A model generated the notes under the pieces. The model saw nothing but the letters and a program-made list of their open reading frames with translations. It ran no database searches and was not told where the DNA came from. From a virus, in IMG/VR virus record IMGVR_UViG_3300014501_000001, positions 49,097 to 113,096 of that record: a stretch of 64,000 nt of DNA. One strand, given 5' to 3'. Shown here piece by piece: positions 7,978 to 39,222 of this stretch (its first letter is position 1; each line of letters begins with the position of its first letter). A program made the translations under genes and the position numbers.

Positions 7978-8676
7978 ATGGCGGACATTCTCGAAGCAAC
8001 GATCGCCCCGGCTGACCAGCTCAGCCCCACGGGCGCAGAGGTCGCCGGCAACGTCGCGCAGTTCTCCCGCACGGGGGAAATGCTGAAGGCCCGGCTCCCG
8101 AACCTCGTCAAGGGAGCAGGCTACGCCGGGACCGGCAACGCCCCCCTCACCGACGAGATCCAGATCATGACCAAGGCATCCCAGGCCGCTATCGACCTGC
8201 GGCAGGCAACCTGGGACGGCATCACCGACAAGCCGGCCGTGGTCAAGGGCATGAACCAGGGGTTCCTGAACCAGTTCGGGTACCTGAAGACGGCCCTGAC
8301 GGCCCCGTCGCTGATGGACACCCTCGCGGGTGTCTTCGGGCAGATGCCCGGCGGCAGCGAGGCGTTCAAGAATTTCACGGCCGGCAATCTCGGGGTGGGG
8401 TCGGTGTACGGTTTGGTGCCGTTTGACCTCATGCGACCGAGTCGTCTGATCTACCCGGTATATACCGTTTTCCGCAACAAATTCCCACGGCCCCAGGGCC
8501 AGGGCACGAGCGCGCAGGAACGGGTCATCACCGGCATCTCTGGCAGCCAGACCGGCGGCCAGGGTGTCCTCGACGTGTCCATCACCGAGCTGGTTCAGAG
8601 CGGCGGTACGTTCTCGAACTGGCCCCTCAACCTGCCGCCTTCGGGCTCGCAGACTGAGGTCTTCCTCAATGTGCCT
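7978..8676 (+). CDS. Major capsid protein, exon 1
   Basis: Encodes the first 233 residues of the capsid protein from ATG 7978 (site AAGGAG). It has helix-rich N-terminal residues, then LTAPSLMDTLAGVFGQMPGG, GSVYGLVPFDLMRPSRLIYPVYTVFRNKFPR and GSQTEVFLNVP, the HK97-fold N-arm/E-loop layout of large actinophage capsids. The unspliced frame reads on as CIL and stops at 8686-8688, well short of a capsid protein. The inferred 5' splice site follows U8676 of GTGCCT. Joining to 10025 gives FLNVP-YRFFGISEQ, restoring frame. Spliced length with exons 2 and 3 is about 609 residues. Confidence 0.85.
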
Positions 8677-10024
8677 TGCATCCTGTAGGGCCGCCGCGCC
8701 GCGAGGCGCACGCGATAACCGCGAGAATTGCTGGAAAGCCCGTACCACATGCACATGCCACAACGTGGGGCGAAAGCCCGAGCGTGATGGCCTGAAAAAT
8801 GTGCATTAGGGGTAATCAGCAGCCGAGCCCGCCTGGACCGCGACACGCGGCACCGACGGGATGGTTCAGAGACTATGCACGCGGGTTCTGGTAATCTTTA
8901 ACGATGGAGATTAATAACGATGACTGGCAGATAATGGCCGGTCAGGAGCGGGAAGAGTTCATTCGGCGCTACGTGGCTGGCGAGGCCCTGACATCCCTCG
9001 CCAGGGAGTATCACCACGGGCCTGCCACGCTGAGGGCAATCCTCGTCAGCGTGGGGGTGCCAGTCCGGACAAGGCCCGGATACGCCAAGGGCAGGAAGTG
9101 GTCAGAAGCGCAGCGTGAAGCTCACAGGCGCACAACTAGCACCCCTGAGCACAGGCAGAAGATGCGCGCGATCATGCTGAAACGCCTCCCGGTCATGCGC
9201 GGAGCGGCGACGAACTCTCCGATCGAGCGCCGGATGCAAGATGCGCTCATGGCGGTCGGCATCGGCTTCACAACGCAGTCTGTCCTGCTGGACCGCTACC
9301 TGGTGGACATCGAGATCCACCAGGCACCCATCGTGATTGAGGCTGACGGCGCGCAGCACACACTGCGCATCCAGAAGGCCAAGGACGCCGAGCGCGACAC
9401 GGCTCTCACTGCCGCCGGGTACCGGGTTTTCCGGTTCACGGGCAGCGAGATCAATGCCGACGCCGTGCTGTGTGTCCGGCGTGTTATCGACGCTTGCTTC
9501 CTGGTTCCCGACCAGGAGCCCATCTATGAAATCCGCACGGCTTTCACTGGCGAACTCCACCCGCTCTGGAAGGGCGGCAAGCGGGAGTTCACCTGCGAGA
9601 TCTGCGGGGTCGTGTTCATGGCTCAGCCTGCGCACCGCAAGGGGCCGCACATCTACTGCAGCATGCAGTGCAATGGTGCAGCCAAGCGCGGCAAGACGGC
9701 GAGTGCTGAGACCCGTGCCAAGATCAGCGCCGCGAATAGGGGCAAGGAGCGCAAGCCCCCGCCACCGTTCACGGCCGAGCATCGCGCCAAGATCAGCGCA
9801 GGGCTTAAGGGCAGGCCAAAGACTGCGGAGCACGCCGCCAAGGTTGGTGCAGCGCAGGCTGGCAGGCCAAAGTCCGCCGAGACTCGGGCAAAGATCAGCG
9901 AAACGCTCAAGCGTCGAAACGCAAACCAGAACAAGATAGAGTCCGCTCTGCATGGAGACATGCAGAGGCCGGCAGAAATGACCGGCCCCGCCACCCTGTT
10001 CTGAGGGCGGCGAGTAACAACAGG
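8677..10024 (+). ncRNA. Group I intron 1 in the capsid gene
   Basis: Core elements appear in order. P1 pairs exon GCCU (8673-8676) with GGGC (8688-8691), with a U8676-G8688 wobble at the splice site, and continues as UGCA/UGUA. P element AATTGCTGGAAA is at 8726-8737, Q element AATCAGCAGCCGAGCC at 8814-8829, R element GTTCAGAGACTA at 8864-8875, and S element AAGATAGAGTCC at 9933-9944. P3 is AACCGCG (8717-8723) with CGCGGGTT (8880-8887). P8 is TTCTGGT (8886-8892) with ACCAGAA (9925-9931). P9 is a perfect 9-bp hairpin with a GAGA loop (9946-9967), followed by GGCCGG/CCGGCC (9967-9987). The intron ends in G10024, and P10 can form between GUA (8685-8687) and exon UAC (10025-10027). The homing endonuclease ORF fills the P8 loop and runs through S and P9. 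Confidence 0.88.
8904..10004 (+). CDS. Intron-encoded homing endonuclease (DUF559/Vsr-like with NUMOD3 repeats)
   Basis: A 366-residue protein with ATG at 8904 just after the 5' strand of P8 and no clear ribosome site. Residues 10-60 are helix-turn-helix-like. Residues 104-185 match the Vsr/DUF559-type nuclease fold: SPIERRM (Glu108), LVDIEI (Asp135), IVIEADGAQH (Glu146, Asp148, His152), then ERDTALTAAGYRVFRF. This is the arrangement of the EDxHD class of phage homing enzymes. Residues 231-256 form a Cys4 finger (CEIC...YCSMQC). Residues 265-340 hold three to four NUMOD3-type DNA-binding repeats (SAETRAKISAANRG, TAEHRAKISAGLKG, SAETRAKISETLK). Its last 24 codons also encode the S and P9 elements of the intron. 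It should cut intronless capsid genes and spread the intron. Confidence 0.85.
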   Translation: MEINNDDWQIMAGQEREEFIRRYVAGEALTSLAREYHHGPATLRAILVSVGVPVRTRPGYAKGRKWSEAQREAHRRTTSTPEHRQKMRAIMLKRLPVMRGAATNSPIERRMQDALMAVGIGFTTQSVLLDRYLVDIEIHQAPIVIEADGAQHTLRIQKAKDAERDTALTAAGYRVFRFTGSEINADAVLCVRRVIDACFLVPDQEPIYEIRTAFTGELHPLWKGGKREFTCEICGVVFMAQPAHRKGPHIYCSMQCNGAAKRGKTASAETRAKISAANRGKERKPPPPFTAEHRAKISAGLKGRPKTAEHAAKVGAAQAGRPKSAETRAKISETLKRRNANQNKIESALHGDMQRPAEMTGPATLF

Positions 10025-10084
10025 TACCGTTTCTTCGGCATCAGCGAGCAGCTTTCCTGGCTCGCGCAGTTCGCAGGACAGGGT
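10025..10084 (+). CDS. Major capsid protein, exon 2 (20 codons)
   Basis: A 60-nt exon reading YRFFGISEQLSWLAQFAGQG. This is a strongly capsid-like segment (WxAQFAGQG precedes the D/E-x-A/R-x-L helix in related actinophage capsid proteins). It begins directly after the G that ends intron 1. It is followed by CAACTT and a stop 25 nt later, so it cannot be read on to exon 3 without removing 10085 to about 10344. Confidence 0.8.
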
Positions 10085-10344
10085 CAACTTAGAGGCCCCC
10101 TCGCAGGGTGACCTGCGAGTTCACTCGGCACCGTAACGGTGAACCCCGCCAAGCCAAGGGGAATACCGTGGAAACCTCGCACTACAGGGTTCCGTAGAGA
10201 GCAAGCGTGCCGCGCCTGTGTCATGGGACCTGCCCCGAGTGCATCAGGGGCAGCGGACCGCAGGCGAAGTTGTGCTCCGGGCTCGCGCGATGGAAAAGCG
10301 CGAGAGGCGTCCAGAAATGAGGCGCCCGGCCGTCCCCAGTGGCG
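10085..10344 (+). ncRNA. Second intervening sequence, probable ORF-less group I intron
   Basis: About 260 nt with stops in the flanking frames (TGA 10109-10111 and TGA 10318-10320) separate two segments of one capsid protein. It is dense in helices: CTCGCAGG-GTGA-CCTGCGAG (10100-10119), GTTCAC...GTGAAC enclosing CACCGTAACGGTG, CTGCCCC/GGGGCAG (10230-10253) and CTCGCGC/GCGCGAG (10282-10304). A P1-like pairing, exon GGGU with GCCC (10095-10098), places a U-G wobble at the end of exon 2. GAATACCGTGGAAA (from 10161) could be a diverged P element. R and S could not be assigned with certainty (GGAC 10255-10258 with GTCC 10309-10312 is a candidate P7). The 3' end is uncertain: G10341 or G10344 both keep frame. 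Confidence 0.62.
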
Positions 10345-11415
10345 GCAGGTAACAGTTCGTTCGAGGACATTGCCGGCCTGGCCAACCTGATCATGCTTCA
10401 GGAGGCCATGCTCGGAGAGGAATATCAGTTCATAGCGGGCACTTCCGCTCCGCTGGCCGTTCCCGCAGCACCGACCTGCACTGTCCGCACCGCCGGCTCC
10501 AATGAGACGGCGCTCAACACGAACATCACCGCGGTCAAGGTGGCCGCGACCAACTACTTCGGCTCGACCGCCGTCTCGGCGGCCTCGTCCACGTTCGCCG
10601 TGGCGTCCGGCCAGGTCGTGGATGTCACGATCGCCCCGGTCGCGGGCACGATGACCTACTCGATCTACGCCTTCACGTCCGGTTCCAGCTACTACCTGCT
10701 GGCATCGGGCGTCGGCGGCCAGAAGTACACCCTGCAGGGCTTCTCGTCCCTGCCGACCGCCGTCGTCCCCCCGGCTGCCGACACCGGCACCGGGAAGAAC
10801 ACCCGGATGGAAGGCGTCATCCCGACGCTCACCGGGGCGTCGGCCGCTGCGGGGGTCTACCCCAGCGGCTGGCAGGGCGGCTACGTCAACCAGTCCGTGG
10901 GAACCCACCTGTCCTACAACGCCATCTACACGGCGCTGGACAGCCTGTGGGAGTCCAACTCCAACTCACCGGGCGCATTCAAGGCGGACCCGCAGGAGAT
11001 CGTCGGCGACGGCGGCGACATCATGCGCCTGTCCAACGACGTGATCTCGGCGGGGACGGCGACGAACTACCGCCTGTTCCTGGAGCAGCAGGAAGTCGGG
11101 GGAATGCGCGTCGGCGGCGCCGTCAGCGAGTTCCAGAACCCGATCACCCGGTCCATCCTCAAGCTGGTCGTCCACCCCTGGTTCACGCAGGGCACGGCGG
11201 CCTTCATGACCTACCAGCCGCCGATGACCTACTCCCAGATCAGCAATGCCTGGGAAGCCCGAATGGTGCAAGATTACGCCAGTATTGCCTGGCCTGTCAT
11301 AGATGCGACCTTTAGGTTCTCAATCTTCTGGTATGGGGCCTTGATCGCGAATGCGCCATTCTTCTCCGGTTTGCTCCAGGGGCTCCAGATTAGTGACGTT
11401 ACGCCCTACTCCTGA
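10345..11415 (+). CDS. Major capsid protein, exon 3
   Basis: Encodes about 356 residues starting AGNSSFEDIAGLANLIMLQEAMLGEEYQF, the long spine helix of HK97-fold capsid proteins. Residues about 30-140 (LAVPAAPTCTVRTAG...KYTLQGFSSLPT) form an Ig/FN3-like insertion. The P-domain follows, with GVIPTLTGASAAAGVYPSGWQGG, LSYNAIYTALDSLWE, VGGDIMRLSNDVI-like helices and the closing MTYQPPMTYSQISNAWEARMVQDYASIAWPV. The open frame alone could begin at GTG 10339, but there is no ribosome site and it would lack the capsid N-terminus, so it is taken as the last exon. The exact first base is 10342 or 10345. Confidence 0.82.
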   Translation, partial: AGNSSFEDIAGLANLIMLQEAMLGEEYQFIAGTSAPLAVPAAPTCTVRTAGSNETALNTNITAVKVAATNYFGSTAVSAASSTFAVASGQVVDVTIAPVAGTMTYSIYAFTSGSSYYLLASGVGGQKYTLQGFSSLPTAVVPPAADTGTGKNTRMEGVIPTLTGASAAAGVYPSGWQGGYVNQSVGTHLSYNAIYTALDSLWESNSNSPGAFKADPQEIVGDGGDIMRLSNDVISAGTATNYRLFLEQQEVGGMRVGGAVSEFQNPITRSILKLVVHPWFTQGTAAFMTYQPPMTYSQISNAWEARMVQDYASIAWPVIDATFRFSIFWYGALIANAPFFSGLLQGLQISDVTPYS

Positions 11416-12460: not shown

Positions 12461-13600
12461 ATTCGCATACTCGCCCACAGTAACGCGCCATGGGAGAAAT
12501 CGGGCTACGGTACGCAAATCGCCCTGCTTGCCCAGCGGCTGCCGGAACTCGGCCACGAGGTCGTGCTGTCCGCGTTCCACGGGCTCGGCGGATCGCCGCT
12601 GGCGTGGAACGGGATCACGGTCCTGCCCGGCGCGTTCCCCGGTGACCCGTACGGCGCCGGGATCCTGCCGCAGCACCGGGCACGGCACGGCGCGGACCTG
12701 ATCATCACCCTGATGGACGTGTGGGTGCTGGACCCGGCACCGCTGAAAGGCCAGCCCCTCGCCTGCTGGATGCCATCCGACTCCGAGCCGCTCTCGTCAG
12801 TTGACAGGACGTTCCTGGACGCCTCCGGGGCCATCCCGATCGCGATGTCACGGTCAGGGGAGGCACGGCTCAAGGATGCGGGCTACTCGCCGCTCTACGT
12901 GCCGCACGGCATAGATGTCCAGTTGTTCTCGCCGTCGCCTATCCGGGAGGAGACCAGGGAGATCCTGGAGGCCACCGGGAAGTTCACGATCGGCATCAAC
13001 GCGAACAACAAGGACTCCTTCCGCAAGGGCATGTACGAGCAGATGGCCGCGTTCGCGAGGCTGCACGCGGCGCACCCGGACACGCTGCTGCTGATCCACG
13101 GCCTGGTCCACGAGGTCGGCTCGGTGGACCTGGCGCAGGTGACCCGCAACCTGGGGATTCAGGAGGCGGTGAAGTTCTGCGGGCAGTACGAGTACCTGAC
13201 CGGGATGATCACCAGCCAGCAGGTCGCGAACTGGTACGGGGCACTCGACCTGTACTCGCAGGCGAGCTTTGGCGAGGGCTTCGGGATCACGGCGCTGGAA
13301 GCGCAAGCGTGCGGCGTGCCTGTGGTCACAACCGACGCGGGGGCGATGGCGGAGATGTGCGGCGGCGGCTGGAAGGTCGCCGGGGAGAAGTTCTGGAACC
13401 CGGTGCACAACGCCTGCTGGACCCGCCCGTCGATCGCCGGCATCCACCGGGCGTATGAGCAGGCGTACCAGCGGGGCAAGGCGTACGAGGCCAAGAAGGC
13501 TAAGTGCGTCCCGTTCGCCGCGCAGTACGACGCTGACCGGGTGCTGAAAGAGCACTGGGCTCCCGCGCTCGCCGAGCTTGAGCGGAGGATCACGGCGTGA
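12461..13600 (+). CDS. GT4-like glycosyltransferase, apparent ATT start
   Basis: The conserved N-terminus RILAHSNAPWEKSGYGTQIA (glycine-rich donor-side loop of GT-B enzymes) is in frame from ATT 12461, which sits 6 nt after AAGGGG (12449-12454). The frame is closed by the previous stop at 12440 and holds no ATG, GTG or TTG until GTG 12563, which would delete 34 conserved residues. Hence 379 residues from ATT. Later motifs are VPHGIDVQLF, FTIGINANNKDSFRKG, YSQASFGEGFGITALEAQ (E-x7-E signature near 271-279) and CGVPVVTTDAG, typical of family 4 retaining glycosyltransferases. It heads a cassette with an epimerase and a second glycosyltransferase and may glycosylate virion proteins. Confidence 0.82.
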   Translation: MRILAHSNAPWEKSGYGTQIALLAQRLPELGHEVVLSAFHGLGGSPLAWNGITVLPGAFPGDPYGAGILPQHRARHGADLIITLMDVWVLDPAPLKGQPLACWMPSDSEPLSSVDRTFLDASGAIPIAMSRSGEARLKDAGYSPLYVPHGIDVQLFSPSPIREETREILEATGKFTIGINANNKDSFRKGMYEQMAAFARLHAAHPDTLLLIHGLVHEVGSVDLAQVTRNLGIQEAVKFCGQYEYLTGMITSQQVANWYGALDLYSQASFGEGFGITALEAQACGVPVVTTDAGAMAEMCGGGWKVAGEKFWNPVHNACWTRPSIAGIHRAYEQAYQRGKAYEAKKAKCVPFAAQYDADRVLKEHWAPALAELERRITA

Positions 13601-13896
13601 GTGAGCGCGAACCCGAGGTCCACCTGCTCAAGGAGGACAGCGCCAAGCCGGGATTGCGGCACCTGCCCGAGGAACACGCGCCCGTTACCACGGTCGCCGC
13701 TGATCACCCTGTCGCCGTCCGGGAGCCGGGACGCTGCCAGGCATGCCATGCGTTCGCCCTGCTTGAGCGGCACTGGCCGGGCGGGATCCTGCTGCCGGGC
13801 CGCCACGTTGAGATCTGCGCTGCGTGCCGGGGTCTGGGTGACGAGGAGATCATGCGGAGGCTGCCGGACTGGAGACGGGACGGGGCGAGCACATGA
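13597..13896 (+). CDS. Small CxxC protein in the sugar cassette
   Basis: A 99-residue protein with GTG start overlapping the previous TGA. The N-half is acidic and His-rich (HLLKEDSAKPG...HLPEEHAP). Then a possible zinc site: CQACHAFALLERHWPGG...CAACRGLGDEEI. It is coupled to the glycosyltransferase and, by ATGA overlap, to the epimerase. Function unknown. Confidence 0.55.
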   Translation: MSEREPEVHLLKEDSAKPGLRHLPEEHAPVTTVAADHPVAVREPGRCQACHAFALLERHWPGGILLPGRHVEICAACRGLGDEEIMRRLPDWRRDGAST

Positions 13897-14780
13897 GGGT
13901 TCTCGTAACTGGGGGCGGGGGCTTCATCGGCCGCCACGCCTGTGACGCGCTGACGGCGGCCGGCCATTCGCCGCTGGTGCTCGACCGGCGGCGGGACCGC
14001 AACTGCGGGCATGACGTGATCCTCGGCGATGTCCGGGACGCGACGGCGGTCACGGAGGCGGTCGCGCACTGCGAGGGCGTCATCCACCTCGCCGGGGTGC
14101 TCGGGACGGCGGAGACGATCAGCAACCCGCGGCCGGCGGCGGAGGTCAACATCCTCGGCGGCCTGAACGTGGCCGAGGCATGCGCGCAGTACGGGGTGCC
14201 GCTGGTGAACATCGCGGTGGGGAACTGGTTCGAGTACAGCACCTACTCGGTCACCAAGAGCACCGTGGAGAGGTTCTGCGGGATGTACCGGCGGTACCGG
14301 GGCCTGCCCGTCGCGTCGGTGCGGGCCTTCAACGCCTACGGGCCGGGCCAGTCCGTCGCGGCGCCTTACGGCACGTCGAGGGTGCGGAAGATCATCCCGT
14401 CGTTCATCATGCGGGCACTGCACGGCGAGGCCATCGAGGTCTACGGCGACGGCTCCCAGGTGATGGACATGGTGTACGTCACCGATGTCGCCGCCGCGCT
14501 CGTCACCGCACTGGAGGGCCTCGCGGCCGGGTGCGTGCCGGATGAGCCACTGGAGGCGGGCACCGGGCGGGCGACGACCGTGGCGCAGATCGCGGAGATG
14601 ACCCGCGCCGAGGTGGAACGCCAGACCGGGGTCGCGGGCAAGGTGGGCTTCCTGCCGATGCGGCCAGGCGAGACCCCCGGCAGCGTCGTCCTCGCCAGCG
14701 CGGGCCTGCCCGGCTGCGTCCCGCTCGAGGACGGGCTCGCCCGGACGGTCACGCATTACCGGGAGGCGGCCGGGTGCTGA
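13893..14780 (+). CDS. NAD-dependent sugar epimerase/dehydratase
   Basis: A 295-residue extended short-chain dehydrogenase. The Rossmann glycine motif TGGGGFIG (Gly7, 10, 13), acidic Asp31 after the second strand, the catalytic YSVTK (Tyr118, Lys122), FNAYGPGQ and VYGDGSQVMDMVYVTDVA are all visible. Such enzymes act on nucleotide sugars in the cytoplasm (UDP-glucose 4-epimerase or related). It lies between two glycosyltransferases with overlapping ends, so it presumably makes the sugar they transfer. The exact substrate cannot be told from sequence. Confidence 0.85.
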   Translation: MRVLVTGGGGFIGRHACDALTAAGHSPLVLDRRRDRNCGHDVILGDVRDATAVTEAVAHCEGVIHLAGVLGTAETISNPRPAAEVNILGGLNVAEACAQYGVPLVNIAVGNWFEYSTYSVTKSTVERFCGMYRRYRGLPVASVRAFNAYGPGQSVAAPYGTSRVRKIIPSFIMRALHGEAIEVYGDGSQVMDMVYVTDVAAALVTALEGLAAGCVPDEPLEAGTGRATTVAQIAEMTRAEVERQTGVAGKVGFLPMRPGETPGSVVLASAGLPGCVPLEDGLARTVTHYREAAGC

Positions 14781-15451
14781 TCCACCGGATGTGGCTCGGC
14801 CCCCGCCCCATGCCGGCGCCGTTCCGCGGCTTCGGCAAGAGGTGGCAGGAGCTTAACCCCGGCGCGAAGGTCATCGAGTGGAGCTGGCACAACCTGCCGG
14901 AAGACCTCGCCAATGACGGCGTGCTGGAGGACATCCGGGGCCGCTGCACCAAAGGCGGCTCGATCGAGATGGCGGTCGCGCTCGCCGACGTGATCGCCTA
15001 CGACCTGGTGCGCAGGTTCGGCGGCACCTACGTGAACTGCGACATCCAGCCGCTGCGCCCCCTGTCCCTCCTCGGCGATGTCATTGCCACCCGGCCATGG
15101 GCGTCCTGGGAGAGCGATGAGGAATGGCGCGGGGTAGTCAACGCCGCGTTCGGCGGCCCGGCCGGCCACCCGTTCTGGGAGTCCGTGGTCACCGAGCTGC
15201 TGCCGCAGCGCTACTGGCGGATGAAGGCGGAGGGCAACGGCATCATCCCCGACGCGACCGGCAACGCGCTGATGGGCGAGGCGATGACAGCCCATCCCGG
15301 CGTCCTGCACGCCTTCCCCCGCGAGACGTTCAACCCGGTGCACTCCACCGAACTGGGGCTGCTGACGCCCTCGTGGATCCCCCCTCCCGGTGCCGTCGCG
15401 GTCCATTACTGGGATCACAAGCGGACCGGGCGGACCAACTACATCACCTGA
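14774..15451 (+). CDS. DXD-type glycosyltransferase (Gly_transf_sug family)
   Basis: A 225-residue protein, GTG start overlapping the epimerase stop. The opening LIHRMWLGPRPMP, the middle SIEMAVALADVIAYDLVRRFGG (64-84) and TYVNCDIQPLRPL (85-97) are the signature of the sugar-binding DXD family (Och1/capsular-type). The usual D-x-D is reduced to N-C-D, which may alter metal binding. HYWDHKRTG near the C-terminus is the usual H...W end. Third member of a cassette likely modifying virion proteins or host-surface sugar. Confidence 0.75.
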   Translation: MLIHRMWLGPRPMPAPFRGFGKRWQELNPGAKVIEWSWHNLPEDLANDGVLEDIRGRCTKGGSIEMAVALADVIAYDLVRRFGGTYVNCDIQPLRPLSLLGDVIATRPWASWESDEEWRGVVNAAFGGPAGHPFWESVVTELLPQRYWRMKAEGNGIIPDATGNALMGEAMTAHPGVLHAFPRETFNPVHSTELGLLTPSWIPPPGAVAVHYWDHKRTGRTNYIT

Positions 15452-15500
15452 GAAAGAGGAAAGGAATCCCGCTGAAAGCGCTGGTCAAGCGGGCCTTTCC

Positions 15501-15536
15501 GCTAGAATGTACGTACAGAACCCCCGCGACGGCAGC
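15501..15536 (+). promoter_or_regulatory. Shared HNH-gene leader, promoter-like
   Basis: GCTAGAAT (15501-15508) contains a -10-like TAGAAT and is followed by GTACG and then ACCCCCGCGACGGC. The same order of words (GCTAGAAT, GTACG, AACCCC, GCGACGGC) occurs upstream of the minus-strand HNH gene at 33030. The ACCCCC here also pairs with GGGGGT at about 15545-15550. Interpreted as a promoter/leader that travels with the HNH genes. Confidence 0.5.
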
Positions 15537-15579
15537 CACCGCCCGGGGGTCATGGTCAACCTGTAGAAGGCAGGTCAAC

Positions 15580-16323
15580 ATGTCTAGTGTTATTGATCTA
15601 ACCGGCCATGTCTACGGACGGCTCACTGTCCTGTTCCGGGCGCCCGATGGGGTCGGCTCAAAGGGGCGACGTCAGATCCAGTGGGTCTGCCAGTGTTCCT
15701 GCGGCAACATCTGCATCATCCAGAGAGGCTGCCTTCGCGACGGCCACACCAGGTCATGCGGTTGCATTTCCCGGGAGAGAAGCAATAGCACCACTCACGG
15801 CATGACCAAATCCCCGGAACATGTGGCCTGGCGGGCCATGAAGACGCGGTGCTTCAATCCGAATACCGCGAGCTGGCCCGACTACGGCGGCCGGGGCATC
15901 ACGGTGTGCCCGCAGTGGCGCAACTCGTTTGAGCAGTTCTATGCAGACATGGGTCCGCATCCGGGGCCGGAATACTCCCTTGACCGCATCGACAACGACG
16001 GCGATTACGAGCCGGGTAACTGCCGCTGGGCGACCGCGTCGGAGCAGGCCTTCAACAGGACCTACCGCAAGCCTCGCATCTGCCAATGCGCATGCAATCG
16101 GGGCGAAGGGCAATGCGGCAGGAAAAACCGAAGGGGCGAAGAGTCGGTGAACGGCTCTGGACTTGGCGGAATGACAGGCGGTCACGGGGACCAGACCTAC
16201 CGCGAGGGACGGGCGCTCCTCGGCCCCGAGGGCATGGCCGGCGACTTCGGCGCCCACTACGGCCAGATCCAGGCGGACGCGGAAATCATCCGGGGACTGC
16301 TGAACGGGGGAAACGGGACTTGA
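15580..16323 (+). CDS. HNH homing endonuclease, free-standing
   Basis: A 247-residue frame from ATG 15580. Residues 6-62 are the N-terminal zinc module of phage HNH genes (DLTGHVYGRLTVLFRAP...WVCQCSCG...LRDGHTRSCGC). Residues 70-155 hold THGMTKSPEHVAWRAMKTRC, YGGRGITVCPQW and the catalytic region YSLDRIDNDGDYEPGNCRW. The last 75 residues lose HNH character and read like a separate small protein (MTGGHGDQTYREGRALLG...IIRGLLNGG) that may start at GTG 16147 or ATG 16171. It sits between the sugar cassette and a zinc-ribbon gene. Confidence 0.82.
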   Translation: MSSVIDLTGHVYGRLTVLFRAPDGVGSKGRRQIQWVCQCSCGNICIIQRGCLRDGHTRSCGCISRERSNSTTHGMTKSPEHVAWRAMKTRCFNPNTASWPDYGGRGITVCPQWRNSFEQFYADMGPHPGPEYSLDRIDNDGDYEPGNCRWATASEQAFNRTYRKPRICQCACNRGEGQCGRKNRRGEESVNGSGLGGMTGGHGDQTYREGRALLGPEGMAGDFGAHYGQIQADAEIIRGLLNGGNGT

Positions 16324-37815: not shown

Positions 37816-39222
37816 ATGGTCGAACGATGCGCGCTCTATGCCCGCCTCAGCTACGCCCCGGACGGCTCCGTCGAGGCCGTCACCCGGCAGGAGGAGTTCG
37901 CCCGGGGACTGGCCGCCCGGCTGGGGTGGGGAGTCGGCGCGGTTTTCGTGGACAACAGCCTCTCAGCCTGGAAGCGCGGTGTCATCCGGCCCGGCTGGGA
38001 CCGGATGCTGGCCGGCCTCCGATCCGGGGCATGCGACGGCCTGGTTTCCTACCACGGCGACCGGCTCATCCGCAGCGACCGGGGCCTGATCGACCTGTTC
38101 GACATCGCCGAGGAACGCGGCCTGCCGATGGCATCGGTGTCCGGCACCCGCGACCTGTCCAGCCCCGATGACAGGTACATCCTGCGCATCGAGGTCGCCG
38201 GGTACATCAGGGAATCCGACAGCATCTCCCGCCGCGTGAAGGCCGCCCTGGAGCGCAACGCCCGGCTCGGGAAGGCCCGGCCGGGCAGGTACCGGGCCTA
38301 CGGCTACGACCGGGCCGGCATGGAGATCATCCCCGGCGAGGCGGCGGTCGTGCGGGAGATGGCCGCCCGGATGCTCGCCGGCGCCGCGCTCAACTCCGTG
38401 CCCCGCTGGCTCAACGCGGAGAGCGTGCCGACCGTGACCGGAGCCCCGTGGATCCGCGCCACCGTCCGCTCCGTGCTGACCTCCCCGCGCATCGCCGGGC
38501 TGCGGGCACTGCGGGGCGACATCATCGGCCCCGGGCAGTGGCCGGGGATCCTGGACCGGGAAACCTGGGAGGACGTCCAGCAGGTCGTGAAGTCCTGGCA
38601 CTACGGCAAGGGAAGGGGGTCCAGGGTGCCCCGCGCTCACCTGCTCACCGGCATCGCCGCGTGCGGCTCCTGCGGGCGCGGCCTGCGGTCCCTGCGCCGC
38701 AGCGGCCACCCGGACAGGCACATCTACTGGTGCGACAACCCCGCGTGCCCCGGCCCGAAGGTCGCGCGCTCGGAGGAGCACCTGGACGAGTACGTGACCA
38801 CCGCGACGATCACCGTGCTGAACTCGCCGGAAGCCCGCGCCTCCCGGCAGCAGCGGCAGGGCAGCCCCGTGCTCGCCGCGGAGATCGCGGCCCTGGAGAC
38901 CCGGATGAGCGCCGAGCAGGCCGCGATGGACGAGATGCGCGACAGCGGCGACCCCGACTACGACCCGGTACTGGCGATGCGCCGCATCGGGTCGTGGAAA
39001 CGGCGCATCGCCTCGCTGCGGGGGCAGATGGAGGCCACCTCCCGCCAGCGGCTCATCGACGCCACGGGAGAACTCACCCGGGGGCAGTGGGACGGGCTGA
39101 CCCTGGAGCGGCGGCACGCCATCATCTCGGCGCTGTGGGAGGTGACCGTGCTGCCTGCCGCGAGGAAGGGGAGGCAGCCATTCGACCCGGAGTGCGTGCG
39201 GCTGGTGCTGCGGGAGGACTGA
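37816..39222 (+). CDS. Large serine recombinase (integrase)
   Basis: A 468-residue protein. Catalytic domain at 1-150 with YARLS (nucleophile Ser12), FVDNSLSAWKRGVIRPGWDRML, GLVSYHGDRLIRSDRGL and IESDSISRR-type helix E (YIRESDSISRRVKAALERNA). The recombinase domain is at about 150-270 (GYDRAGMEIIPGEAAVVREMAARMLAG...RSVLTSPRIAGLR). The zinc ribbon at about 280-312 reads CGSCGRGLRS...YWCDNPACPG. A coiled-coil follows (EIAALETRMSAEQAAMDEMRD). Length is typical. It mediates attP x attB integration. It lies directly after the late terminator and before a tyrosine recombinase. Confidence 0.9.
   Translation: MVERCALYARLSYAPDGSVEAVTRQEEFARGLAARLGWGVGAVFVDNSLSAWKRGVIRPGWDRMLAGLRSGACDGLVSYHGDRLIRSDRGLIDLFDIAEERGLPMASVSGTRDLSSPDDRYILRIEVAGYIRESDSISRRVKAALERNARLGKARPGRYRAYGYDRAGMEIIPGEAAVVREMAARMLAGAALNSVPRWLNAESVPTVTGAPWIRATVRSVLTSPRIAGLRALRGDIIGPGQWPGILDRETWEDVQQVVKSWHYGKGRGSRVPRAHLLTGIAACGSCGRGLRSLRRSGHPDRHIYWCDNPACPGPKVARSEEHLDEYVTTATITVLNSPEARASRQQRQGSPVLAAEIAALETRMSAEQAAMDEMRDSGDPDYDPVLAMRRIGSWKRRIASLRGQMEATSRQRLIDATGELTRGQWDGLTLERRHAIISALWEVTVLPAARKGRQPFDPECVRLVLRED

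What the first reader, a model, noticed from the sequence alone, without database searches (positions are those of the whole stretch)
7978..11415. Major capsid gene split by a group I intron with a fully traceable core
Exon 1 stops prematurely, yet its protein continues at 10025 (FLNVP-YRFFGISEQ). Between them P1 with a U-G splice wobble, P, Q, R and S elements, a 7-bp P8 and a GNRA-capped P9 are all visible in the right order. Introns in an essential virion gene make capsid production depend on ribozyme splicing and are uncommon in actinophages.
Basis: partly seen in the sequence, partly recalled or inferred. Interest (0 to 1): 0.9.

Follow-up and report, generated by a model that had tools for sequence, protein, structure and literature searches.

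The report
Capsid gene broken by two introns
In this uncultivated virus of bacteria the gene for the main shell protein appears to be cut by two self-removing RNA elements, not one as first thought, and relatives carry up to nine in the same gene, which makes it a hot spot for such elements.

Summary
The major-capsid-type gene carries two group I introns: intron 1 at 8677-10024 (1348 nt, homing-endonuclease ORF in P8) and a missed ORF-less intron 2 at 10085-10359 (275 nt). Exons 7978-8676, 10025-10084 and 10360-11415 join to a 604-residue protein that aligns end to end with uninterrupted relatives.

A covariance model built without the window finds exactly these two 3' domains in the 64-kb window and the 113-kb record. 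It also matches the RT-PCR-proven introns of phages LittleE (capsid) and BAKA (tail).

The gene is a hot spot. In 27 chosen records of the clade all 36 hits fall in it. I mapped 77 introns at 28 positions; one gene has nine. Endonuclease ORFs mostly group by insertion site, not by ribozyme type. The same ribozyme subfamily occurs in other capsid, tail and portal genes.

LittleE's intron and a crAss-like capsid gene in five pieces are known, so this is a new variant of a known kind. Splicing here is inferred; there are no transcript data.

The parts
7978..8676 (+). exon 1 of the capsid-type gene (codons 1-233, ends FLNVP)
   Evidence: abuts in uninterrupted relatives; phrog_13692 E 6.4e-10 for the exon 1 ORF
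8677..10024 (+). group I intron 1, type A, 1348 nt, with endonuclease ORF in P8
   Evidence: spliced alignment; R2 163.4 bits and R1 86.4 bits, window in neither model
8673..8691 (+). P1 of intron 1: exon GCCU with guide GGGC (8688-8691), U8676.G8688 at the splice site; guide-side GUA (8685-8687) can form P10 with UAC at 10025
8719..8884 (+). intron 1 core, 5' half: P3 5' strand 8719-8723, P4 8729-8734/8816-8821, P6 8822-8824/8863-8865, P7 5' strand 8869 and 8871-8876, P3 3' strand 8880-8884
   Evidence: structure counted on 35 sequences
8885..9932 (+). P8 of intron 1: 8885-8891 with 9926-9932 (7 bp); the endonuclease gene fills its loop
8904..10004 (+). intron-encoded endonuclease ORF, 366 aa, DUF559 and NUMOD3; its last codons are also ribozyme 3' domain
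   Evidence: Pfam E 3.2e-14 and 1e-7; site-234 clade
9933..10019 (+). S/P7 3' strand, P9 (GAGA loop), P9.1 and 3' end of intron 1
   Evidence: R1 86.4 bits, E 1.1e-23
10025..10084 (+). exon 2, 60 nt, YRFFGISEQLSWLAQFAGQG
10085..10359 (+). group I intron 2, 275 nt, no ORF, relative of the BAKA intron
   Evidence: R1 59.2 bits at 10267-10354; 81% over 81 nt to BAKA; spliced alignment
10360..11415 (+). exon 3 with stop codon
   Evidence: abuts in uninterrupted relatives; phrog_13692 E 2.6e-31 for the exon 3 ORF

Best explanation
The gene at 7978-11415 encodes one 604-residue major capsid protein from three exons separated by two group I introns. The transcript removes both by guanosine-initiated splicing (inferred from structure and from proven relatives, not shown here). 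P1 sets the 5' sites after U8676 and U10084; G10024 and G10359 end the introns. An in-frame stop 3 codons into intron 1 and 8 codons into intron 2 would halt ribosomes before they unfold the ribozyme (inferred). Intron 1 is a mobile unit: its DUF559/NUMOD3 endonuclease belongs to a clade found at this exact site (before codon 234) and would cut intronless alleles in a co-infecting phage so that repair copies the intron in (inferred). Intron 2 is an ORF-less relative of the BAKA/LittleE introns. The gene is a recurrent landing site: relatives carry 0 to 9 introns at about 28 positions, mostly in conserved stretches.
For: Uninterrupted relatives give the exact joins (22 of 30 loci). The nearest relative L003 (95% in exon 3) lacks intron 2 and has its own intron 10 nt upstream of the intron 1 site. 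R1, built without the window, gives 2 hits in the window and 2 in the 113-kb record; over 76 loci it gives 119 hits, none in the 22 uninterrupted loci. Covariation: 98.4% of 2164 cells paired (shuffles 83.1%), 37 of 62 pairs with a change on both sides (shuffles 25.5 +/- 1.9), score 0.452 against 0.151. Sister introns reach the Rfam RF00028 cut-off at 13 places in 7 of 12 loci searched, up to 72.1 bits. RT-PCR-proven introns of BAKA and LittleE match R1 (64.9 and 55.2 bits); intron 2 is 81% identical to BAKA's over 81 nt. In 79 introns exon-guide pairing averages 4.63 bp against 3.27 +/- 0.20 with swapped exons and P10 2.44 against 0.57 +/- 0.09. An in-frame stop lies within 10 codons of the 5' site in 68 of 79, against 73 of 155 for the other frames. 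Seven of eight endonuclease-sized ORFs at site 234 have their best match at the same site, although L008's ribozyme is type C and the others type A.
Against: No transcript, in vitro splicing or virion protein data. Both window halves score below the Rfam cut-off. P7 of intron 1 has one A.G mismatch. My spliced aligner demanded U before and G at the end of each intron and a GUAACA-like motif nearby, so these are not independent evidence. Capsid identity rests on distant matches (24-28% identity) and a low-confidence model. The site rule for endonucleases has exceptions: L077's longest frame at site 234 matches nothing, and L032 and L159 share site 263 but their ORFs do not match; L112 and L154 have no ORF at site 234.
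Confidence: 0.94

Rival explanations
1. One intron only: intron 1 is real, and the 10085-10359 gap is an assembly or sequence artefact or a dead insertion.
For: L003, the nearest relative, has no insertion there; the intron 2 score is lower (59 bits).
Against: The gap has its own 3' domain at E 1.7e-15, 81% identity over 81 nt to the RT-PCR-proven BAKA intron, a P1 and P10, and exact in-frame joins. L108 has an insertion two codons away.
Confidence: 0.03
2. The gene is broken: the phage is a defective relic or the capsid is made as separate pieces, and exon 1 gives a working 236-residue protein.
For: Stops follow each 5' site; no RNA data.
Against: All three exons stay open and align to intact homologues end to end. 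Ribozyme pairs covary across the family. In-frame stops near the 5' site are a family-wide trait (68 of 79), which reviews read as an aid to folding (PMC3984707, passage).
Confidence: 0.02
3. The insertions are inteins or stretches skipped in translation rather than introns.
For: Both kinds of element interrupt phage genes (recalled).
Against: The insertions contain in-frame stops, most are under 450 nt (51 of 77), and they carry a covarying group I core.
Confidence: 0.01
4. Splicing is real but mixed: exon 2 (60 nt, 20 codons, in frame) is sometimes skipped, giving a shorter capsid variant.
For: Exon 2 is a multiple of three. Exon skipping in two-intron phage genes is reported for SIOphi (47%) and Twort orf142 (PMC11878797, discussion read).
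Against: Exon 2 encodes one of the most conserved stretches (codons 241-260 average 0.91), so a skipped product is unlikely to work. Skipping was not tested here.
Confidence: 0.15

Closest known systems
LittleE major capsid gene intron (mycobacteriophage; PMC3706429, passages read)
   Same: Capsid gene of an actinophage; group I type; U at the 5' exon end and G at the intron end; endonuclease ORF; 3' domain matches R1 (55.2 bits). A glycosyltransferase gene follows the capsid gene there and lies nearby here
   Different: One intron at one site; its endonuclease is LAGLIDADG-related and on the opposite strand; splicing shown by RT-PCR and N-terminal sequencing
BAKA/Optimus tail-gene intron (265 bp; PMC3706429, same passages)
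   Same: Window intron 2 is 81% identical over 81 nt, of like size and without ORF; R1 64.9 bits
   Different: Sits in a tail gene; splicing shown by RT-PCR (BAKA)
Capsid gene of crAss-like genome OLRF01000054 in five fragments (PMC7886860, passages read)
   Same: Several interruptions of one phage capsid gene, three of four with group I intron domains
   Different: Gut phages of another order; four interruptions; no junction map in the passages read. Here up to nine per gene
Twort orf142 (three introns, exon skipping) and Bastillevirinae polymerase genes with up to three (PMC11878797, passages, discussion)
   Same: Phage genes with several group I introns and endonuclease ORFs
   Different: That discussion asks why introns favour nucleotide and DNA metabolism genes; the family here favours virion genes
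EDxHD homing endonuclease I-Bth0305I (PMC3943268, passages read)
   Same: Intron-encoded phage nuclease with modular DNA-binding parts; EADG..H and a later D invariant in nine aligned ORFs
   Different: Named here only by Pfam DUF559; no solved structure matches at E below 0.001 (best 3hrl, E 0.012); activity untested

Membership tests
Group I intron | Conserved P3-P8 core with bulged P7 | tested here: met
   62 pairs in 13 helices on 35 sequences including the window core: 98.4% of cells paired, 37 pairs change on both sides. Window intron 1 departs at one P7 pair. For intron 2 the same P3 and P7 were read by eye on the alignment
Group I intron | U of the 5' exon paired to G of the guide (P1), G at the intron end, P10 | tested here: met
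   U8676/G10024 and U10084/G10359; 4 exon-guide pairs and 3 P10 pairs each
Group I intron | Guanosine-initiated splicing | not testable with these tools
   needs RNA work
Group I intron (Rfam RF00028) | Score at or above Rfam's gathering cut-off (a detection threshold, not a trait of the class) | tested here: not met
   Window 23.6 and 22.9 of 50 bits. Sister introns without ORF reach it at 13 places in 7 of 12 loci
LittleE/BAKA-type intron | Homologous 3' ribozyme domain | tested here: met
   R1, built without them and without the window, matches both of them and both window introns
LittleE/BAKA-type intron | Homologous 5' half | tested here: inconclusive
   Intron 2: 81% over 81 nt to BAKA. 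Intron 1: the type A model R2 finds neither BAKA nor LittleE
EDxHD homing endonuclease | E, D, H, D catalytic pattern in a Vsr-like domain | tested here: inconclusive
   EADG..H and a later D invariant in nine ORFs; DUF559 E 3.2e-14. That this pattern is EDxHD is my reading from recall
Major capsid protein | Homology to annotated major capsid proteins | tested here: met
   Homologue L026 against Alicyclobacillus phage MMB025 'major head protein' E 3e-17 (74% covered) and Arthrobacter phage Mufasa8 'major capsid protein' E 5e-7 (78%)
Major capsid protein | HK97 fold | tested here: inconclusive
   Model of homologue L029: mean pLDDT 54. Parts align to SPO1 capsid (Z 9.4, 102 residues, 2.9 A) and phicrAss001 capsid (Z 7.2, 82 residues, 2.8 A), with unrelated proteins among the rows

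The most novel reading that the evidence does not exclude
A lineage of group I introns has specialised on virion genes. Its type A ribozyme subfamily lies in at least four capsid families that sequence searches keep apart and in tail and portal genes, and in one phage clade such introns have colonised the capsid gene again and again, up to nine times. The endonucleases would act as capsid-gene-specific weapons against co-infecting relatives, and ribozymes and endonucleases trade partners while the target site stays fixed.
Probability: 0.35. Interest if true: 0.82.

Novelty: new variant of a known kind. Interest (0 to 1): 0.62.

Why it matters
A 2025 study of Bastillevirinae introns (PMC11878797, discussion read) asks why phage introns sit in nucleotide and DNA metabolism genes. 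Here is a large, well-structured family that is found mostly in virion genes. In the records examined, every intron hit of this clade lies in the capsid gene, and alleles with 0 to 9 introns form a natural series for testing what introns cost or gain. It is a test bed for three open questions: whether capsid output can be limited by ribozyme splicing, how exons of 8-60 nt are joined in order without a spliceosome, and whether intron endonucleases exclude rival phages, as shown for phiPA3 against phiKZ (PMC11620839, passages read). It also warns that gene callers will report broken capsid genes in such phages.

Tried and rejected
Rfam on the window at its gathering scores: nothing; in E-value mode on 8600-10450 five weak hits to unrelated families. 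tblastn of exon 3 against cultured phages: no match; the full-length homologue L026 was needed. Scan of IMG/VR with the window endonuclease: 12 pattern stretches, no relative confirmed, so endonucleases were compared only inside introns found by other routes. There the ORF taken is the longest stop-free frame; for L071, L077, L088, L101 and L159 it lies on the minus strand and may not be the real gene. AlphaFold of the intact homologue L029: mean pLDDT 44.6 with 20 sequences and 54.0 with 58; Foldseek against viral models gave no full-length capsid match. PDB sequence search with the capsid profile: best an antibody chain, E 0.007. blastn of one type A mini-intron against cultured phages: no match. 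R2 finds none of LittleE, BAKA or L240.

Dropped rows. One search mapped introns in 36 loci. Four without a model hit were dropped (L118j codons 127 and 340, L131 codon 340, L140 codon 549), leaving 79. Two with a hit but a doubtful 5' end (L066 codon 56, L088 codon 147) were then dropped, leaving 77. Near-identical contigs are in both sets (L048/L061/L066/L160, L118j/L131), so independent insertions are fewer. Model hits left unused by the aligner: L066 1, L065 2, L118j 1, L131 1, L140 1, L154 1, L042j 1. Distant relatives L055, L060, L068, L086, L096 and L132 (1-5 R1 hits each) were not mapped. The conservation test (0.84 at 29 listed sites against 0.705 +/- 0.027, 0 of 20,000 draws) treats clustered sites as independent and overstates significance; its list still holds codon 147. 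The 30 records were chosen by me, many because they had introns, so they say where introns lie, not how common they are. Statements on what is not in print rest on nine searches of an open-access library.
Full report
WHAT IS THERE. The window is part of an uncultivated virus record of 113,096 bases. From 7978 to 11415 lies one gene in three exons. Exon 1 (7978-8676) reads to ...FLNVP and meets a TAG three codons on. Exon 2 (10025-10084, 60 nt) encodes YRFFGISEQLSWLAQFAGQG. Exon 3 runs from 10360 to the stop at 11415. Joined they give 604 residues, the length of the uninterrupted homologue in L029. A one-intron model fails: the frame from 10025 stops after 28 codons.

HOW THE JOINS WERE FIXED. 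A scan of IMG/VR with exon 3 found 30 relatives. In 22 the gene is uninterrupted over the part covered (L031 is cut off). Eight are interrupted: L003, L006, L008, L014, L017, L024, L028 and L032. The nearest relative, L003 (95% in exon 3), lacks intron 2 and carries its own intron 10 nt upstream of the intron 1 site, so intron presence differs between close relatives.

THE RIBOZYMES. The interruptions show three ribozyme types (labels mine): A (P GAAUUGCUGG, Q AAUCAGCAGCC, R GGUUCAGAGACUAU, S AAGAUAUAGUCC), B (R GUAGAGACUGUACGUGC) and C (Q AACGCCGAGGCAA). Window intron 1 is A; intron 2 is nearest to B and to the BAKA intron. Patterns from types A, B and C hit 111, 19 and 13 stretches of IMG/VR. 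I aligned 34 ORF-less type A introns with the intron 1 core and counted a structure written by hand: 62 pairs, 98.4% of 2164 cells paired (shuffles 83.1%), 37 pairs with a change on both sides (shuffles 25.5 +/- 1.9), covariation 0.452 (shuffles 0.151; slid versions 0.030-0.079). The outer pair of P7 occurs as GC 22, CG 7 and AU 6.

INDEPENDENT MODELS. R1 (3' domain, types mixed, window left out) gives two hits in the window, 9933-10019 (86.4 bits) and 10267-10354 (59.2 bits), and the same two in the whole record. Over 76 loci it gives 119 hits and none in the 22 uninterrupted ones. R2 (type A 5' half, window left out) gives 163.4 bits at 8717-8883. Rfam RF00028 stays below its cut-off for the window (23.6 and 22.9 of 50 bits) but reaches it at 13 places in 7 of 12 loci with sister introns.

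LINK TO PROVEN INTRONS. LittleE's capsid intron and BAKA's tail intron were shown to splice by RT-PCR (PMC3706429, passages read; the same passages cite a capsid-gene intron in lactococcal phage Tuc2009). I fetched both regions. R1 matches both, 55.2 and 64.9 bits. Intron 2 is 81% identical to the BAKA intron over 81 nt and 77% to LittleE over 82 nt. On the alignment, P7 of intron 2 and of BAKA differ by paired changes (GAGCA/UGCUC against GACUA/UAGUC, read by eye).

SPLICE-SITE TESTS. Over 79 model-supported introns, pairing of the 5' exon end with the guide averages 4.63 bp against 3.27 +/- 0.20 with exons swapped from other sites, and P10 2.44 against 0.57 +/- 0.09. Both window introns have 4 and 3. 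An in-frame stop lies within 10 codons of the 5' site in 68 of 79 (median 2), against 73 of 155 in the other two frames (median 11). Reviews read such stops as an aid to intron folding (PMC3984707, passage).

A HOT SPOT. Spliced alignment of 36 loci mapped 77 introns (51 under 450 nt, 26 over 700 nt) at 28 codon/phase positions. In L029 numbering 234/0 occurs in 10 loci, 162/2 in 7, 273/0 in 7, 260/2 in 6 and 141/2 in 5, near-identical contigs included. These 28 lie at codons 138-162, 230-273 and 551-595, in conserved stretches. One search adds one near codon 70 (L244) and one at codon 135 (L243). R1 over 30 large records that I chose gave 44 hits: 36 in 12 of the 27 records of this clade, none in the other 15, and 8 in three other records (those of L123, L099, L089). 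All 36 lie in the capsid gene: 33 by spliced alignment, one by BLAST blocks (L150) and two by eye. The nine-intron gene (L243) spans 5.1 kb for a 604-residue protein. My aligner placed nine introns, eight on model hits; the ninth hit bounds a 19-nt exon that I read by eye. In L244 the last hit leaves an 8-nt final exon, also by eye. A 3-kb contig of an Actinomycetes MAG has five R1 hits around a fragment of the gene.

MOBILITY. Intron 1 encodes a 366-aa protein with DUF559 (E 3.2e-14) and NUMOD3 (E 1e-7). Its last codons are also ribozyme sequence; a review describes such overlap (PMC3984707). Seven of the eight endonuclease-sized ORFs at site 234 (window, L008, L017, L108, L114, L118j, L131; the last two identical) have their best match at the same site, 47-55% identical to the window's, although L008's ribozyme is type C and the others type A. 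ORFs at sites 260, 162, 141 and 273 also match best within their site. Exceptions: L077 at 234 matches nothing, and L032 and L159 at 263 do not match each other. I infer that the endonuclease fixes the site and that ribozymes have been exchanged.

OTHER VIRION GENES. Of 130 places of the type A pattern in L035-L145, 53 lie within 2 kb of a match to this capsid family. For 76 of the other 77 I clustered flanking exons (L117, a piece of the L140 contig, was left out) and scanned nine representatives. A 23-place cluster matches Phage_capsid PF05065 (E 8.7e-11), a 10-place cluster phrog_1357 major head protein (3.2e-17) and a 6-place cluster phrog_267 major head protein (6.2e-21). L047, L106 and L145 (same upstream exon) match phrog_617 major head protein (0.0008) and L075 phrog_10 major head protein (3.6e-7). 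A 6-place cluster matches a major tail protein (5e-7), L089 tail tube (3.8e-24) and L102 portal (5.1e-16). L046 matched nothing. If cluster members share the gene, 104 of 130 places are in virion genes (96 capsid, 7 tail, 1 portal); 26 are unassigned. The pattern came from capsid introns and phage relatedness is not corrected for, so this is a lead, not a proof.

IS IT THE CAPSID PROTEIN? Exon 1 and exon 3 ORFs match phrog_13692, of unknown function, as do all 20 intact homologues scanned (one member each also touches two major-head families at E 0.02-0.08). Homologue L026 matches an annotated major head protein (MMB025, E 3e-17) and a major capsid protein (Mufasa8, E 5e-7), both downstream of a maturation protease. 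The 896-aa ORF upstream in the window has a weak head-maturation-protease match (E 0.006). The predicted fold is of low confidence; its parts align to phage capsids.

PLACE IN WHAT IS KNOWN. One group I intron in an actinophage capsid gene is known (LittleE). Several in one phage capsid gene are known from crAss-like phages: five fragments (PMC7886860, passages). Three per gene is the most in the passages I read on Twort and Bastillevirinae (PMC11878797). In nine searches I did not find a phage gene with five to nine, a site-resolved map, or an intron family favouring virion genes. Hence: new variant of a known kind.

Noticed in passing
window 12563-15451: A sugar cassette follows the head genes: glycosyltransferase group 1 (12563-13600), NAD-dependent epimerase (13893-14780), and an ORF that by eye resembles another glycosyltransferase (14774-15451, no Pfam match). 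LittleE also has a glycosyltransferase right after its capsid gene, so virions may be glycosylated.
   Followed up: partly
window 15124-16323: Inside this ORF a stretch (GHVYGRLTVL...SLDRIDNDGDYEPGNCRW) reads by eye like a free-standing AP2/HNH-type endonuclease; Pfam gave no match.
   Followed up: partly
window 37816-39222: Large serine recombinase (Resolvase E 1.5e-18, Recombinase E 9.1e-14); the phage may be temperate.
   Followed up: no
L006 6500-6580: A 370-nt intron keeps what by eye looks like a NUMOD3 remnant (SAEHRAKLSAALKG) in its P8 loop: an endonuclease gene apparently lost by deletion.
   Followed up: no
L240 1-3019: The only bacterial hit of the capsid scan is a 3-kb contig of an Actinomycetes MAG with five intron 3' domains: a weak host hint, as it may be a stray phage fragment.
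   Followed up: partly
L055, L060, L068, L086, L096, L132: More distant relatives of the capsid family carry one to five R1 hits each, so the infestation reaches beyond the clade mapped here.
   Followed up: no
L029 6242-8053, residues 281-390: The intact homologue has a confidently predicted beta domain (pLDDT about 80-92) that aligns to part of the SPO1 capsid protein (Z 9.4, 102 residues, 2.9 A). None of the 77 mapped introns lies in it.
   Followed up: partly
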